A DNA stretch of 64,000 bases from Glycomyces luteolus (GTDB lineage: Bacteria; Actinomycetota; Actinomycetes; Mycobacteriales; Micromonosporaceae), in assembly GCF_027622875.1 (NCBI RefSeq), contig NZ_JAPZVP010000004.1, forward strand, positions 233,210 through 297,209. Direction: 5' to 3'. Below, piece after piece: positions 3,022 through 60,828 of the stretch; position 1 is the stretch's first letter; every line of letters begins with the position of its first letter. Under the pieces are notes generated by a model. The model ran no database searches. It was not told the origin of the DNA and was given only the letters and a program-made list of their open reading frames with translations. Position numbers and translations under genes: made by a program.

Positions 3022-3348
3022 GGGCCGAACGTAACAGAGGCCATAGGCGGGAGCCATGGCAGAAGTTGAGCGGAGCGCGGATTCGAAGCCGCCCCCGTTT
3101 TCGATGGTGCCCGAGGGGTCCGACAAGACGGTGGGAGCACGAAGGCGAAGCGAGGCCGGTGGGCGGACTCGTCGGTGCGCGGGCGGAACCGCGAAGCGAG
3201 GCGGCGCGGCGGTGGTCCGGCGGAACGCGCAGCGGGACCGGATCAGCGGGCGGCGTCGCGGGCGTTCCCGGGCGGGCGTGCGGCGGGCCCCGCTCACGTC
3301 CGGACTAGGATCGAGGCCCCGCTGACGACTTGGCCGCCTGGAGGTCCT
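3022..3348. other. Intergenic region between divergent hydrolase and uppS
   Basis: About 330 bases without a convincing gene. It holds the hydrolase promoter (3028-3033, minus strand) and a likely uppS -10, TAGGAT at 3306-3311. Open frames here are GC-driven and lack ribosome sites or coding signatures. Confidence 0.5.
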
Positions 3349-55275: not shown

Positions 55276-55890
55276 ATGGGCGCCAAGGCCGCCATTGTCT
55301 ATATAGGAGAAGGACTGCCGCGGGACGCGCTGCGGAACGCGCCGCCGTTCGACCCGGTCGCCTCCGCCGAACTCGCCGAAGCCGTGCTCGGCGCGCCCGT
55401 GAGCGAGGTCGGCCGGGCTCCCCTCGCCGCATCGACCTGGCCGGAGGCGCCGGAGATCAGCGCCGTGAGCTTCCCGGATTTCGACCTGGTCTGCTTCAAA
55501 CCGCTCGCGCAGGACCGCCCGAGCGACCTGACCGAGTGGATCCGCGCCATGTCCCCGGCGGGGAACGCCTGCGGCGTCTTCATGTACAGCGTCTACGACT
55601 ACCTCTCGATGGCGGTGTGGGAGCACGGGGACGTCCGCCGCTCGCTCAGCCTCACGCCCGACGAGGGCATCTTGGAGGACCTGGGCGAGCGCTACCCGTT
55701 CGAGACCGCGTTCTGGAACGGCGACCATTCGATCCACGACTTCGCCCCCGACTACCCGTTCCCGTTCCACCCGCTCGAACTCGGAGAAGCGACCCTGGGC
55801 GGATGGTTCGGCTTCCACCTCGAAGGCGTGCCGAATGCGGGAGTGGACGCCTGGTCGATCGAGATGCCGTGTTACCGCCGGACGGAGTGA
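55276..55890 (+). CDS. DUF6928 family protein
   Basis: 204 residues. Conserved features I recognise from this actinobacterial family: N-terminal MGAKAAIVYIGEGLPRDALR, then FMYSVYDYLSMAVWEHGDVRRSLSLTPDEGILEDLGERYPFE and FPFHPLELGEATLGGWFGFHLEGVP. Function unknown. ATG at 55276 has a GAGGAGCA ribosome site, better than the ATG at 55243. Confidence 0.8.
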   Translation: MGAKAAIVYIGEGLPRDALRNAPPFDPVASAELAEAVLGAPVSEVGRAPLAASTWPEAPEISAVSFPDFDLVCFKPLAQDRPSDLTEWIRAMSPAGNACGVFMYSVYDYLSMAVWEHGDVRRSLSLTPDEGILEDLGERYPFETAFWNGDHSIHDFAPDYPFPFHPLELGEATLGGWFGFHLEGVPNAGVDAWSIEMPCYRRTE

Positions 55891-55915
55891 GCATGGGTGT
55901 GGCATGGTGAGCGGC

Positions 55916-56485
55916 ATGTCTGCAGCTCTCGTTCTGCCGAGCAGCGTCGACGAGGCGGTATCGCTGACGTCGGCCGGCCACTCGTTCAAGTACGTGCACT
56001 TCTGGGGCCACTCGCCCGAGGCGGACGGCAGCGCCGGGCGCGGCTGCCTCAGCCAGTGGTGGCCTGCGGCTTTCACCGAGGACGGGCACCGCTTCGCCTC
56101 CGCCGAGCACTACATGATGGCGCACAAGGCCTGGCTCTTCGGCGACGACGCCTCCGCCAGGAAGATCCTCGCCGCGGGCCACCCGGGCGAGGCCCAGGCG
56201 CTCGGCCGAAAGGTCCGCGGCTTCGACCAGAAGGTCTGGGAGGCAGAGCGTTTCGGCATCGTCGTGCGCGGCAGCCTCGCCAAGTTCGGCCGCCACGGCG
56301 ACCTCCTCGCCTACCTCCTCGGCACGAAGCACCGCGTCCTCGTCGAGGCCAGCCCCCGCGACCGCATCTGGGGCATCGGCCTCGGCGAGACCGACCCCCT
56401 CGCGGCCTCCCCGGAGACCTGGAAGGGCCTCAACCTCCTCGGCTTCGCCCTCATGGAAGCCCGCACCCGACTCGCCGCCTCCTGA
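55916..56485 (+). CDS. NADAR family protein (YbiA-like)
   Basis: 189 residues. NADAR fold: YVHFWGHSP, CLSQWWPAAFTEDGHRFASAEHYMMAHKAWLFGD, KVRGFDQKVWEAERFGIVVRGSLAKF and SPRDRIWGIGL, which carry the substrate-pocket residues. YbiA-type enzymes cleave reactive riboflavin intermediates; other members remove ADP-ribose from guanine in DarT toxin systems. No DarT is nearby, so the riboflavin-type role is as likely. Confidence 0.9.
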   Translation: MSAALVLPSSVDEAVSLTSAGHSFKYVHFWGHSPEADGSAGRGCLSQWWPAAFTEDGHRFASAEHYMMAHKAWLFGDDASARKILAAGHPGEAQALGRKVRGFDQKVWEAERFGIVVRGSLAKFGRHGDLLAYLLGTKHRVLVEASPRDRIWGIGLGETDPLAASPETWKGLNLLGFALMEARTRLAAS

Positions 56486-56495
56486 AGGACCGACA

Positions 56496-57065
56496 ATGAA
56501 CGATCTCTCCGGCGCCGCCGGATACCTCCTCGAAGCCGGCATGCTCAAGCGCGCCCGCCGCTCCGGCTGGTGGATCGCCGGGGTCCGCGACCCCGAGAGC
56601 ATCGCCGAGCACAGCTGGCGGGCGGCGATGACCGGCATGGTCATCGCCAGCCTCGAAGGCGCCGACCCCTCCCGTACCGCGATGCTGCTCGTCCTCCACG
56701 ACACGCCCGAGACCCGCATCGGCGACATCCCGAAGATCGGCCGCGACTACCTCACCGCCACCGACGCCGCCTCGGTCGTCGCCGACCAGACCGCCGCATG
56801 CCCCGACCGGGTCAAGGCCACAGTCCATGACGCCATCGCCGAATTCGAAGCGGGCGAGACCCCCGAAGCGATCTGCGCCAAGGACGCCGACAAGCTCGAA
56901 TGCCTGATCCAAGCCGTCGAATACCGCCACCAAGGCGTCACGACCGTGCAGCCCTGGATCGACAGCAGCCTAGCCGCCCTCCAAACCGAAACCGCCCGCT
57001 CCCTCGCCCGAGAACTCCTGGAAGCCGAACCCCTGGCCTGGGAGCAGACCCGCGAAGCGAAGTGA
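56496..57065 (+). CDS. HD-domain phosphohydrolase (YfbR/5'-deoxynucleotidase-like)
   Basis: 189 residues. HD hydrolase with HSWRAAMTG, the HD pair in LLVLHDTPETRIGDIP, and the final acidic ligand in AKDADKLECLIQAVEYRHQG. This layout is that of HD_3/YfbR-type dNMP 5'-nucleotidases. Ten bp after the NADAR gene, so probably cotranscribed; ends at the shared terminator. Confidence 0.88.
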   Translation: MNDLSGAAGYLLEAGMLKRARRSGWWIAGVRDPESIAEHSWRAAMTGMVIASLEGADPSRTAMLLVLHDTPETRIGDIPKIGRDYLTATDAASVVADQTAACPDRVKATVHDAIAEFEAGETPEAICAKDADKLECLIQAVEYRHQGVTTVQPWIDSSLAALQTETARSLARELLEAEPLAWEQTREAK

Positions 57066-57127: not shown

Positions 57128-58693
57128 TCAGAAGGGCCAGTCCGCGTTTCGGCCGGACTCCAGGAGTCCGATCATCGCGAACGCGGCGTCGGTCAGCCCG
57201 CCAAAGGTATGGCGGGTGCCCGCCCCCGACGGGGCGTGTCCGTGCCGGTATCCGGCCAGATTCCAGGTGTAGACCATCCGGTCCCCGGGCACCGCTGCGG
57301 TCACGTCGCGGCCGCCGCCGAAATGAGCCTGCTCGTCGGTCAGGATCACCACCCGGTCGTGGTCCTGATAGTGCTTGCGGACTGCGCTCTCGGTACTGGT
57401 GCCCGACCCGATGAAGTATCCGTCGGACTTCCACCGCTCGACGGCCCGCAGGAGCGACTCGCCGGGCCGCTGCCGGAAGGTCTTGGTGCGGTCGGAGAAC
57501 GAGACCACATCCGCGGCGGCGCACCGGCGTGCGAGGGCGAGACCGAACACGGTGGCCGCGTCCCATCGCATCAGCGAGCCGTCGCGGGAGAAACCGGAAC
57601 GCATCGAGCCCGAGGTGTCCACCAGGATCAGCGTCCGGCCGGGCAGCCCGGGCACGTTCGCCAGTGAAGCGTCCAAGGCCTGTTCCAGGGCGTAGCTCCA
57701 CCGCAGCGAGGGCGCGGCCCGGTAGGCCGAGAGGAACCGCATCGGGAGCTGCCGGGACTTCGCGACCTCGCCGGGGTCGGCGAGTCGCGCGGCCACGAGT
57801 TCGGCGGCCCAGTCCGCGACCTCGGCCTCGTCGAAATTGCGCAGGTTCCGCAGCTGCGCCATGTATCCCATGGACGGAATGAGCGCTTCCCACAGCCGGG
57901 CCTTGGGCACCTTCGACCCGACCAGCGACAGCGCGTCCTCCCAGCTCATGCCCGCTTCGCGGAGTCGATCGGGATCGAGCACCACCCTCGGGTCCTCGGT
58001 CGCACGGGCCCGGAGCGCCTGGTTCGCGCGGATCGTCGTCAGGCGCTCGGGCACGGTCTCGACCCGTCCGTAGCGGCGGTCGAGGAGGTGCCCGAACAGG
58101 TCGCCCTGGCGCTCGTCGCGGGGTGCGGCATGCACGAGGTTGAGCACGTCGCCGAAACGGTAGCCCTTCGCGGCGGTGTCGTATTTGAGCGCCGCCCGCT
58201 CGGTGTACAGCCGCGCAGCGGCGTCGGCGATGCCCCGCTTGACCGGTTTCGGGACGGCCCGGCCGTACGCGGAGGCCCAGTAGGCAAGGGCTTCCCCCGG
58301 CTCGTCGGGGCGCTGCAGCACCGAGTCCACGATCTGACGGCCGCCGGGGATGCCCTTCTCCGCCAAGGCCTTCGCGGCCTCGAGCGCGCCGACCAGCGCT
58401 GCGGAGCGCAGGTTCGCGCCGTTGCGGAGCCAGGCCAGGAACCGCGCGGTCCAGGCCGGGTCGTCGACCGCCGCGGTCCGGACGAGGGCGCGGTATCGGT
58501 CGTCGCGGGCGTCCGCGGCCTCATAGAAGGTCTGCTCGCCGACCATGTTGGTGACCGCGAGCAGGAAGAGCTCCGAGCGGGTGTCGCGGGAGTATCCGGG
58601 AGCGCCTTCATAGGTGCGCCCTTTGGCGTCGGCGCCGGAACGAACGGGTGATTCGAGCGCGGGTCGCGCGGTGGCCTTGTTGAACTTCGCCAT
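57128..58693 (-). CDS. rsr: Ro60-like RNA-binding protein Rsr (TROVE + vWA)
   Basis: 521 residues. TROVE domain ~1-340 of HEAT-like helical repeats (SRDTRSELFLLAVTNMVGEQTFYEAADARDDRYRALVRTAA, FLAWLRNGANLRSAALVGALEAAKAL), then a von Willebrand A domain with MIDAS motif LVDTSGSM, STESAV and ILTDEQ. Bacterial Ro orthologues bind misfolded RNA on the ring rim and are tethered by Y RNAs to exonucleases such as PNPase. ATG at 58693 has an AAGGAACC ribosome site; longer starts would run through the Y RNA genes. Confidence 0.93.
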   Translation of the reverse strand: MAKFNKATARPALESPVRSGADAKGRTYEGAPGYSRDTRSELFLLAVTNMVGEQTFYEAADARDDRYRALVRTAAVDDPAWTARFLAWLRNGANLRSAALVGALEAAKALAEKGIPGGRQIVDSVLQRPDEPGEALAYWASAYGRAVPKPVKRGIADAAARLYTERAALKYDTAAKGYRFGDVLNLVHAAPRDERQGDLFGHLLDRRYGRVETVPERLTTIRANQALRARATEDPRVVLDPDRLREAGMSWEDALSLVGSKVPKARLWEALIPSMGYMAQLRNLRNFDEAEVADWAAELVAARLADPGEVAKSRQLPMRFLSAYRAAPSLRWSYALEQALDASLANVPGLPGRTLILVDTSGSMRSGFSRDGSLMRWDAATVFGLALARRCAAADVVSFSDRTKTFRQRPGESLLRAVERWKSDGYFIGSGTSTESAVRKHYQDHDRVVILTDEQAHFGGGRDVTAAVPGDRMVYTWNLAGYRHGHAPSGAGTRHTFGGLTDAAFAMIGLLESGRNADWPF

Positions 58694-58729
58694 AAGGGGT
58701 TCCTTCCGAACCGGAAGGCCGGACGGTCC

Positions 58730-58844
58730 GCGGATGCCCGAGTTCAGGCCGGCGCGGGACCGAGCCGGCAGTCCGAAGACCGCTTGGGATTCGAACCCTG
58801 CTCGCACACCAGAAGTAGCCCGCGCCATCGCACCGGGCACCCGC
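58730..58844 (-). ncRNA. Candidate YrlA-type Y RNA, module 2 (adjacent to rsr)
   Basis: On the minus strand: outer stem GCGGGTGCCCG / CGGGCATCCGC (58834-58844 with 58730-58740, one G-U), T-arm-like CAGGG-TTCGAAT-CCCAA (58784-58800), then a 6-bp acceptor-like helix GCGGTC-TTCG-GACTGC capped by a stable UUCG loop (58768-58783), then a D-arm-like CGGC...GCCG hairpin (58749-58767). Boundaries are approximate and the T stem is weak (only three strong pairs). The order T arm, capped acceptor, D arm is that of YrlA, not of a tRNA. Confidence 0.65.
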
Positions 58845-58915
58845 TTTGCACGTCCGGCCTCCCGACGATCGGGCGGGACCTGTGAGCGGAGGGCGGCGCA
58901 GCCGAGGAATGAGTC

Positions 58916-59019
58916 GACGGCAGGACACTGCCAGTGCTCTATCCGACTGAGCCACACCGCGGCAACCGCGATGACGGGATTCGAACCCGCGACCTCTGGA
59001 TCCGAAGGAACCCGCCGTC
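58916..59019 (-). ncRNA. Candidate YrlA-type Y RNA, module 1
   Basis: On the minus strand in order: outer stem strand GACGGCGGG (59011-59019), CCAG, a five-base AGGTC variable-loop-like link, T arm GCGGG-TTCGAAT-CCCGT (58974-58990), acceptor-like helix CATCGCGG / CCGCGGTG closed by a TTG loop (58955-58973), two-base TG link, D arm GCTC-AGTCGGATA-GAGC-A (58935-58954), CTGG pairing with the earlier CCAG, and the outer strand CCTGCCGTC (58916-58924). Every tRNA core element is present but the two halves are swapped around a closed acceptor, as in the bacterial Y RNA YrlA, and the Rsr gene lies just downstream. Confidence 0.82.
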
Positions 59020-59180
59020 TGCGCACCGGCAGCGCCGCTTTCCGATTACAAGCCCTCCCGAGATCAAGGCGTCAGCGGGGTTTCGTTGGAATGAAGTATC
59101 CGCGGACTGCGCACCGGGAGGTGCGGCACTCAACATACAAGGTGCTGTCTCCCTGAGCCACAGCATTTCCGGAGGAAAAG

Positions 59181-59215
59181 CGAAAGAGCCCGGACCGGCT
59201 TGCGCCGTCCGGGCT
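59181..59215. terminator. Terminator-like hairpin, copy 2 of duplicated element
   Basis: Identical over 35 nt to 57069-57103; some similarity continues on both sides (GAAAA before, CCACTGTC after). It lies upstream of the Y RNA modules on their strand. Confidence 0.75.
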
Positions 59216-59235
59216 GTTCCCACTGTCTCAAGGCG

Positions 59236-59299
59236 GCTCCCCTCCTCAAGGCCTATGCGCATCTATCCCCGCAGGTAGCAACCCTGAGAACCCGCCTAG
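59236..59299. repeat. 64-bp direct repeat, left copy
   Basis: 60 of 64 bases match 60999-61062. It contains CTATCCCCGCAGGTAGCAAC and ends GAACCCGCCTAG. A weaker third copy of the core lies near 62838-62863. Confidence 0.75.
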
Positions 59300-59320
59300 A
59301 GGCCCTGACAACCCTAATCT

Positions 59321-59363
59321 GCTGACTTAGAGGTGTGCTAACTTAGAAGGAATCTAAGTTAGC
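59321..59363 (+). promoter_or_regulatory. Palindromic operator of the ATPase gene
   Basis: Perfect 11-bp arms GCTAACTTAGA / TCTAAGTTAGC with a 5-bp spacer (59337-59363), plus a further half-site GCTGACTTAG at 59321-59330. Located 20-60 bp before the ATPase start; probably bound by a winged-helix protein, perhaps the ATPase itself. Confidence 0.65.
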
Positions 59364-59382
59364 GGAACTGGTCGGGGGTGGC

Positions 59383-60828
59383 ATGCGCAAGGCTCCGTTC
59401 GTAGGGCGCAAACGGGAGATGGCAGATCTGCGGTGGCGACAGGAACTGGTCGAGCGTGATGGCGAGGGTGTCGCCGTCGCCATCCGGGGCCGTCGGCAGG
59501 CGGGCAAGTCGAGGCTGGTCGAGCAGTATTGCGTCGAGGCGGCGCTGCCGAGGCTGTACTTCCAAGCAAGCAGGGGGGTCGGAACCGCCGAATCGCTCGA
59601 GCTGTTCATGGCCGCGCTTCGGACCTCGGACCTCCCGGGGGCCTCTGCTCTGCCGAGTGCGGCGCCTCGAACATGGCTGGAGGCGTTCGAACTGCTCGCG
59701 CTCGCTCTGCCCGAGGACCGCGTTTCGGTCGTGGTCATAGACGAGATCCCATGGTTGTTCCAGCAGGATTCGCGCCTTGAAGGCTATCTGCAGACGGCAT
59801 GGGACCGGCTGCTCAAGAGGAAGCCAGTGCTACTGCTGTTGGTGGGCAGCGATATCCACATGATGGAGGCGTTCATCGGCTATGACCGTCCGTTCTACGG
59901 GCGAGCGGATCCGATGGTGGTCAAGCCGTTGAACCCCGCGGATACTGCGGAGCTCACCGGCCTGAACGGAGTCGACGCGCTCGACGCCTACCTGATCACC
60001 GGCGGATTCCCTGCGCTCTGCAGAACGTGGGGCGACGGTTCGAATGCCCTGGACTTCTTCGCCGAGCAGTGCCGCAGAGCGACGAGTCCCCTGTTCACCA
60101 TCGGTGAGCAGATGTTGGACTCGGAGTTCCCGCAACCGGATCAGACCCGCAAGGTGTTCTCGGCGATCGGGAGCGGTGAGCGGACCTTCGGCAATATCGC
60201 AGCCCATGCGGGGCGGGGCCCGGACGAACCGATCAAGTCAGGCTCGCTCGGCCCTATCCTCAACCGGCTCCACGACAAGTACGCGATCGCCTTCGATCAG
60301 CCTCTCGCCACCCGACCCGGCAATGGCGGCAAGCTGTACCGCGTCGCCGATTCGTATCTGCGGTTGTACTTGGCGATGCTCGCCGGCGCCTATGAGGAAG
60401 TGAAGCGCGATCGTCATGAGCAGGCGCTGCGGATGATCAAGCGGCGATGGGAAAGCTGGCGCGGCCGGGCGATCGAGCCGGTGGTTCGCGAAGCGCTCGC
60501 TCGCGCGTCCGCCTCGGACGAGTTTCCGTGGCCGGAGGCGGTCGAGGTCGGTGGCTGGTGGCCGCGAAGCTTCGACCCAGAGGTGGACCTCGTCGGGGCA
60601 GACCGCGGACCCGTGGCGAGGACGGTCTTCTATACGGGCTCGATCAAATGGCTCGGCACGCCCTTCGACCGCCATGATCTGAACAGCCTCAGGAAATCCG
60701 CGGGGGCGGTTCCCGGGGCTTCGGATGATGAGAGCGGCATGGTGGTGGTCAGTCGATCCGGTGTAGCAGACGGCGTGGTCGCCGACCTCGTGTGGGGGCC
60801 GGAAGACGTCTTGGCCGCATGGGGCTGA
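59383..60828 (+). CDS. DUF234-type STAND/AAA ATPase
   Basis: 481 residues. N-terminal P-loop NTPase: FVGRKREM, Walker A RGRRQAGKSRL, Walker B VVVIDEIPWL, and LLLVGSDIHMM (sensor 1). YLITGGFPALCRTW follows, then a winged-helix-like middle region (~260-310) and the C-terminal DUF234 domain (YRVADSYLRLYLAML, FDPEVDLVGAD, a PD-(D/E)xK-like strand ending in IKW). The family is widespread in archaea and actinobacteria with unknown function. ATG start follows the operator. Lies between 64-bp direct repeats and has lower GC than its neighbours. Confidence 0.88.
   Translation: MRKAPFVGRKREMADLRWRQELVERDGEGVAVAIRGRRQAGKSRLVEQYCVEAALPRLYFQASRGVGTAESLELFMAALRTSDLPGASALPSAAPRTWLEAFELLALALPEDRVSVVVIDEIPWLFQQDSRLEGYLQTAWDRLLKRKPVLLLLVGSDIHMMEAFIGYDRPFYGRADPMVVKPLNPADTAELTGLNGVDALDAYLITGGFPALCRTWGDGSNALDFFAEQCRRATSPLFTIGEQMLDSEFPQPDQTRKVFSAIGSGERTFGNIAAHAGRGPDEPIKSGSLGPILNRLHDKYAIAFDQPLATRPGNGGKLYRVADSYLRLYLAMLAGAYEEVKRDRHEQALRMIKRRWESWRGRAIEPVVREALARASASDEFPWPEAVEVGGWWPRSFDPEVDLVGADRGPVARTVFYTGSIKWLGTPFDRHDLNSLRKSAGAVPGASDDESGMVVVSRSGVADGVVADLVWGPEDVLAAWG

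What the first reader, a model, noticed from the sequence alone, without database searches (positions are those of the whole stretch)
58916..59019. Unannotated YrlA-type bacterial Y RNA beside the Rsr/Ro60 gene
On the minus strand a 104-nt segment contains every core element of a tRNA, but in swapped order: variable-loop-like AGGTC, a T arm with TTCGAAT, the acceptor 3' strand, a 3-nt cap, the acceptor 5' strand, a TG link (positions 8/9), and a D arm with GG in the loop. A 4-bp CCAG/CTGG helix and a 9-bp outer stem replace the anticodon arm. Published bacterial Y RNAs (YrlA) mimic tRNA in just this way, with the Ro-binding stem where the anticodon arm would be. The gene immediately downstream encodes Rsr. 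Standard gene callers miss such RNAs.
Basis: partly seen in the sequence, partly recalled or inferred. Interest (0 to 1): 0.9.

Follow-up and report, generated by a model that had tools for sequence, protein, structure and literature searches.

The report
Y RNA array beside Rsr gene
Next to a bacterial relative of the human Ro60 gene lies a row of three RNA units, the middle one built like a tRNA with its arms in swapped order; they are likely Y RNAs that would bind the Ro60-type protein, and the same swapped-tRNA design recurs beside an unrelated, unstudied protein family in bacteria and phages.

Summary
Rfam's YrlA model matches 58911-59018 (-) at E 2e-9, though under its curated cut-off (48.7 of 69 bits). 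It is the middle of three tandem units before rsr: A (no tRNA part), B (full permuted tRNA core), C (T arm and hairpin, no D arm). Units precede rsr in all 80 fetched relatives (of 144 found), two or more in 78. So: likely a Y RNA array, known in kind, variant in form; no transcript or binding data. The genome's second hit gave the larger surprise: permuted tRNA cores, often with encoded CCA, lie 3' of DUF7873 genes in 14 of 14 bacterial and 61 of 74 viral-collection loci. In this genus RNA and DUF7873 are present or absent together in 22 of 22 genomes; Rsr is in 6. The Rsr-unit loop motif is near 0 of 106 such cores but in 79 of 80 rsr loci. DUF7873 may be a second partner of tRNA-mimic RNAs.

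The parts
58893..59038 (-).
   Evidence: R1 99.6 bits at 58891-59038 (the window row helped build R1); Rfam YrlA 58911-59018
59026..59038 (-). Unit B basal (outer) helix, 5' strand GCGGCGCTGCCGG, pairs with 58893-58907 (one T-T mismatch)
   Evidence: sequence; helix 1 has pairs changed on both sides in A3 and A8
58893..58907 (-). Unit B basal helix, 3' strand
59011..59019 (-). Unit B inner 9-bp helix, 5' strand, pairs with 58916-58924
   Evidence: helix 2 covaries
58916..58924 (-). Unit B inner helix, 3' strand
58974..58990 (-). Unit B T arm (TTCGAAT loop)
   Evidence: helix 3, 100% of cells paired in both alignments
58955..58973 (-). Unit B acceptor-like stem with 3-nt cap, permuted (3' strand first)
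   Evidence: helix 4; 6 of 7 pairs with changes on both sides in A3, 7 of 7 in A8
58936..58952 (-). Unit B D arm
   Evidence: helix 5; 1 of 4 pairs with changes on both sides in A3, 3 of 4 in A8
59054..59121 (-). Unit A: short sister unit without tRNA core; basal stem CCTCCCG/CGGGAGG, GGTGCGCAG and ATACTTC
   Evidence: motif and stem search; aligned with 14 short units of related arrays; not found by R1, so the weakest of the three
58732..58842 (-). Unit C: sister unit with T arm (58785-58799) and hairpin (58768-58783), no D arm
   Evidence: R1 45.2 bits, E 1.8e-7 genome-wide; motif search
58702..58718 (-). Hairpin holding the GGAAGG ribosome-site-like sequence just before rsr
   Evidence: not convincingly above an upstream-shuffled control
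57128..58693 (-). rsr: Ro60/TROVE protein with vWA-like C-terminal part (DTSGS in the translation)
   Evidence: PF05731 E 6.9e-16, VWA_2 under its cut-off; relatives matched from residue 1; PDB TROVE proteins

Best explanation
The segment is the middle one of three tandem RNA units before rsr; it carries a covarying permuted tRNA core on a covarying basal stem and is likely a Y RNA of the YrlA type, predicted to bind Rsr through the basal stem and to offer the tRNA mimic to tRNA-handling enzymes and PNPase. Shown: the architecture, its recurrence before rsr, the sister units, and genes for Rsr, PNPase and RtcB in the genome. Inferred from work on Deinococcus and Salmonella Y RNAs: the basal stem holds the Rsr ring, and the tRNA-like part tethers or gates PNPase and is modified like a tRNA. 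Inferred here only: units A and C, which share the basal stem but lack a full tRNA core, would occupy Rsr without recruiting the tRNA-binding partner, so the mix of units would set how much Rsr is engaged in RNA decay.
For: Rfam YrlA E 2.3e-9. rsr directly downstream. Each of the 80 fetched rsr loci has at least one R1 hit at E 3e-11 or better before rsr; a motif-only script counts 198 units in 81 loci (80 plus the window), at least two in 79. In that script the two stems pair better within a unit than when re-paired among units: 17.86 against 14.16 outer, 17.49 against 14.72 inner (30 shuffles). Covariation in A3 and in A8, whose rows are new but for the window's own. PNPase and RtcB in the genome. 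Y RNA tethering, gating and modification: passages of PMC4726728, PMC8394870, PMC7790460.
Against: The Rfam score is under the curated cut-off (48.7 of 69). Single-sequence folding does not favour the structure. No sigma-70-type promoter or terminator pattern at the array. Unit A is not hit by R1. A3 rows were picked as full units and A8 was fitted to the model, which both lean towards the structure. Permuted tRNA cores also occur without Rsr, so the core alone does not prove the partner. No transcript or binding data; nothing here tests PNPase contact.
Confidence: 0.86

Rival explanations
1. The three units are a cis-acting leader of the rsr mRNA (an attenuator or protein-sensing leader), with Rsr binding its own leader to limit its synthesis, rather than free small RNAs.
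For: The R1 hits lie 5' of rsr on its strand in the 80 loci and the last unit ends close to the start codon; a hairpin before rsr overlaps the ribosome-site-like sequence.
Against: An upstream-shuffled control pairs that site nearly as well (fraction over 0.5: 0.95 of 80 against 0.71 of 400; means 0.69 and 0.65). Y RNAs of other bacteria are free RNAs (review passages). Not exclusive of the main reading.
Confidence: 0.08
2. Unit B belongs to the DUF7873-linked class of permuted tRNA cores and its partner is not Rsr.
For: The same genome has a DUF7873-linked core that matches R1 (43.7 bits) and YrlA (32.4 bits); in 6 of 10 genus loci R1 even aligns over its whole length to that RNA, at 41.5-48.3 bits.
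Against: GGTGCGNAG, the loop of units A and B, is within 150 nt of 0 of 106 DUF7873-linked cores and in 0 of 10 genus RNAs, but upstream of rsr in 79 of 80 loci. Unit B lies 5' of rsr, and there is no DUF7873 gene in the window's genome other than that on contig C8.
Confidence: 0.03
3. A decayed tRNA cluster.
For: T and D arms match tRNA consensus.
Against: Acceptor, T and basal helices keep covarying; decay would break them. ARAGORN calls no tRNA in the array.
Confidence: 0.01

Closest known systems
YrlA / bacterial Y RNAs (Rfam RF02553; Salmonella YrlA)
   Same: Permuted tRNA core on a long basal stem, gene beside rsr; Salmonella also has two Y RNA genes in one operon (rsr-yrlBA-rtcBA; PMC7790460 passages).
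   Different: Rfam score under the curated cut-off; an extra covarying basal helix with a GGUGCG(A/C)AG / GAUCUCGG loop outside the Rfam match; three units of graded completeness; rtcB is not beside rsr here (it is on another contig).
Deinococcus and vertebrate Y RNAs
   Different: No match to Rfam's Y_RNA family was reported. Likeness of the GGUGCGAAG / CUUGAUCU letters to the vertebrate site is recalled, not tested.
Two-piece (permuted) tmRNA and permuted tRNA genes of algae and archaea
   Same: 3' part before 5' part, joined at the acceptor end (PMC3978253 passages; the hosts are partly recalled).
   Different: The genome has an ordinary tmRNA elsewhere; no tag reading frame was looked for. 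The rsr units carry short acceptor loops and no anticodon loop.

Membership tests
Bacterial Y RNA (YrlA type) | Gene next to a Ro60/Rsr gene | tested here: met
   TROVE gene 57128-58693, same strand, 200 nt downstream of unit B
Bacterial Y RNA (YrlA type) | tRNA-like T, acceptor and D arms in permuted order | tested here: met
   Helices 3-5 each have pairs changed on both sides in two alignments
Bacterial Y RNA (YrlA type) | Basal stem formed by 5' and 3' ends | tested here: met
   Helices 1-2 covary; within-unit pairing above re-paired control
Bacterial Y RNA (YrlA type) | Binding to Rsr and stabilisation by it | not testable with these tools
   Needs pull-down or an rsr deletion
Bacterial Y RNA (YrlA type) | Expressed as a small RNA | not testable with these tools
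   No RNA data
Rfam family RF02553 (YrlA) | Score at or above Rfam's gathering cut-off (69 bits) | tested here: not met
   48.7 bits, E 2.3e-9; so it is filed under bacterial Y RNAs by anatomy, not as a member of RF02553
RYPER (Rsr-Y RNA-PNPase) | PNPase present in the same genome | tested here: met
   PF03726 at G000:C34:338132-338356
RYPER (Rsr-Y RNA-PNPase) | Y RNA tethers PNPase to Rsr | not testable with these tools
   Biochemistry needed
tRNA | Contiguous cloverleaf with anticodon loop | tested here: not met
   ARAGORN, and Rfam at its gathering scores, call only the tRNA-Asn near 63.25-63.32 kb in the window

The most novel reading that the evidence does not exclude
Swapped-order tRNA mimics are not the property of Ro60: a second, unrelated protein family, DUF7873, is the partner of a widespread class of permuted tRNA RNAs. 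DUF7873 genes in actinobacteria, including this genome, and in phages are followed by one or two such RNAs with a 7-bp acceptor stem, T and D arms, a stem at the anticodon position and often an encoded CCA, forming a new RNP that acts on or mimics tRNAs, in some phages inside tRNA gene clusters.
Probability: 0.6. Interest if true: 0.87.

Novelty: new variant of a known kind. Interest (0 to 1): 0.62.

Why it matters
For the window: actinobacterial rsr genes sit behind arrays of Y RNA units with one shared basal stem and a variable top, of which the public model sees only part, so Y RNA counts from Rfam are probably too low. It makes an open question testable, namely what the tRNA-like top is for: nature supplies, side by side in one genome, the same kind of stem with a full, a partial and no tRNA core. 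Beyond the window: if DUF7873 is a second partner of permuted tRNA mimics, tRNA mimicry by stable RNAs is a general device used by at least two protein systems and by phages, with a protein that has no known function and, in these searches, no clear structural relative.

Full report
1. The observation. Rfam's YrlA model, run on 58000-60000, matches 58911-59018 (-) with 48.7 bits, E 2.3e-9, below the family's gathering score of 69; at the gathering threshold the window shows only a tRNA-Asn. In the whole genome (5.74 Mb, 49 contigs) this is the best YrlA match; one other stands out (32.4 bits), the rest are 18 bits or less.

2. The unit is longer than given. In related loci each unit starts with a GC-rich strand followed by GGUGCG(A/C)AG and ends with GAUCUCGG or a variant plus the complementary strand. 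In the window these are 59038-59026 and 58907-58893. Alignment A3 holds 27 full units, picked by me from 22 loci plus the window. Its 31 pairs are formed in 96.7% of cells (83.7% after shuffling), 19 pairs show changes on both sides, each of the five helices has at least one, and no slid register comes near. Alignment A8 holds the 15 R1 matches at E 1e-12 or better in ten loci of the same genus or family, one of them the window itself, the other 14 rows not in A3: 95.1% against 77.3%, 22 of 31 pairs changed on both sides. A8 was fitted to the model, which leans towards the structure; two further family loci were not given to that call (L097 has a weak match of 26.4 bits and L098 none). Folding the single sequence gives no support (z -0.70) and a different best fold.

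3. It is one of three. A motif-only script finds three units before rsr in the window: A (59121-59054, no tRNA part), B (the finding) and C (58842-58732, T arm and a hairpin but no D arm). R1, built from A3, finds B (99.6 bits) and C (45.2 bits, E 1.8e-7 genome-wide) but not A. The related loci are the best 80 of 144 relatives of Rsr that one scan found. In these 80 plus the window the script counts 198 units: one in 2 loci, two in 44, three in 32, four in 3; by pattern 98 have T and D arms, 31 a T arm only, 69 neither. Within-unit pairing beats re-paired units for both stems. By covariance model each of the 80 loci has a hit at E 3e-11 or better before rsr; outside the arrays those loci hold three weak matches (20.2, 16.5 and 14.1 bits), and the window one more of 14.0 bits (E up to 1). 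The 27 A3 rows match by construction.

4. The neighbour. The gene 57128-58693 has a TROVE domain (E 6.9e-16) and a weak vWA match under its cut-off, matches PDB TROVE proteins at E 1.3e-31 and has relatives matched from its ATG at 58693, so the longer open frame to 59026 is probably spurious. No other neighbour is conserved. The genome has PNPase and RtcB elsewhere. DUF7873 from this genome is 96% identical to proteins of two Glycomyces species, so the genus is inferred to be Glycomyces.

5. How it likely works. From papers read in passages: the lower stem of Y RNAs binds Ro60/Rsr, the tRNA-like top of YrlA is modified by tRNA enzymes and binds PNPase, and in Deinococcus Y RNA tethers and gates PNPase (PMC4726728; PMC8394870; PMC7790460). 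The window's unit B has both parts. That units A and C hold Rsr without the tRNA-like top, and so tune the system, is my inference. None of this is tested in this organism.

6. Is it new? Bacterial Y RNAs near Ro60 genes are known; Chen et al. 2014, not held here and recalled only, reported them in many species with at least one tRNA-like Y RNA each. The window is therefore a Y RNA array of a known kind. What differs is the shared extra basal helix outside Rfam's model and the graded series of tops in one array. It is not filed in RF02553, whose cut-off it misses.

7. Where the second hit led. The other YrlA and R1 match of the genome (C8:42808-42906, R1 positions 22-122) is a permuted tRNA core with ACCA between the acceptor strands, directly 3' of a DUF7873 gene. 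In the genus, the RNA (DNA matches of E 1e-40 or better) and DUF7873 are both present in 17 and both absent in 5 of 22 genomes; Rsr is in 6 of 22, in one of them as two matches, and 11 genomes have the RNA without Rsr. Model R2 was built from ten genus copies. Among 197 genomes of the class, 14 have DUF7873, the own genome among them, and R2 finds cores beside all 14, 13 of which are new to it. Of 74 viral-collection loci with DUF7873 (65 distinct gene sequences), 61 have a core within 1000 nt 3' that overlaps no ARAGORN tRNA (54 of 65 distinct). Over the 88 loci, 108 of 126 R2 hits lie there (2 overlap tRNAs) and 18 elsewhere (16 overlap tRNAs); 31 loci have two clean cores. CCA is in the acceptor loop of 69 of the 106 clean cores. 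The 13 viral misses include one contig that ends 9 nt after the gene. The rsr-unit motif GGTGCGNAG is within 150 nt of 0 of the 106 cores and in 0 of 10 genus RNAs, but upstream of rsr in 79 of 80 loci; R1 still aligns over its whole length to 6 of the 10 genus RNAs, at 41.5-48.3 bits. Covariation over 116 distinct rows of all 126 hits: 90.7% of cells paired against 57.9%, with acceptor, T, D and anticodon-position stems varying together (fitted alignment, the 18 other hits included). Of 73 phage records with DUF7873 I fetched seven regions: in three (Gordonia Phendrix, Rhodococcus NiceHouse, Arthrobacter Racecar) R2 hits lie in the unannotated gap after the gene; in Gordonia Keelan one lies about 530 nt on, inside a called frame; in three (two cyanobacterial phages, one Vibrio phage) R2 finds none there, though by eye two of these hold similar arms; further hits in Phendrix and Keelan lie on annotated tRNAs. 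In Phendrix the gene sits inside a tRNA cluster, and 26 of the 74 viral loci have three or more ordinary tRNAs. One 115-kb viral contig has DUF7873 with two cores and, 1.3 kb on, three rsr-type units and a TROVE gene; ARAGORN reads a tRNA-Pro over part of one of those units. DUF7873 has 5,362 relatives among the 7,997 candidates scored, a confident predicted fold, no PDB match at E 0.001 or better and no paper in this library. That it binds these RNAs is inferred from linkage and joint presence only.

8. Verdict. Finding supported and extended; a Y RNA array, known in kind, variant in form. The more novel reading, a second RNP class built on permuted tRNA mimics, is put at 0.6.

Noticed in passing
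G000:C8:42808-42906 (L002:1501-1613; L099, L124): Permuted tRNA-like RNA with encoded ACCA directly 3' of a DUF7873 gene, without the rsr-unit loop motif; the RNA and the gene are present or absent together in 22 of 22 genus genomes.
   Followed up: yes
L114-L201: 14 of 14 bacterial and 61 of 74 viral-collection DUF7873 loci have one or two permuted tRNA cores just 3' of the gene.
   Followed up: yes
L163:4001-8307: A 115-kb viral contig carries DUF7873 with two permuted cores and, 1.3 kb on, three rsr-type units and a TROVE (rsr) gene; ARAGORN calls a tRNA-Pro over part of one unit.
   Followed up: partly
L202-L204: Gaps of about 400-530 nt without annotation follow the DUF7873 gene in Gordonia phage Phendrix (gp144), Rhodococcus phage NiceHouse (gp119) and Arthrobacter phage Racecar (gp145); R2 finds permuted cores in them.
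   Followed up: partly
window 55835-56485 (+) and 56496-57065 (+): NADAR-domain gene and HD_3-domain gene next to rsr, convergent; a NADAR relative also lies upstream of the array in one of 80 related loci (L058), so the link may be chance.
   Followed up: partly
window 59383-60828 (+): ATPase_2/DUF234-like gene divergent from the array; found beside rsr in 0 of 80 related loci.
   Followed up: no
L092:3818-3979 (+) and 3052-3200 (-): Two rsr-type units on opposite strands in one family member, so one unit lies away from the array.
   Followed up: no
window 59010-59004 and the same place in other units: A strongly conserved UUACUUC-like stretch (window unit B: UUCCUUC) follows the inner helix in units with and without the tRNA core; its role is unknown.
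   Followed up: no
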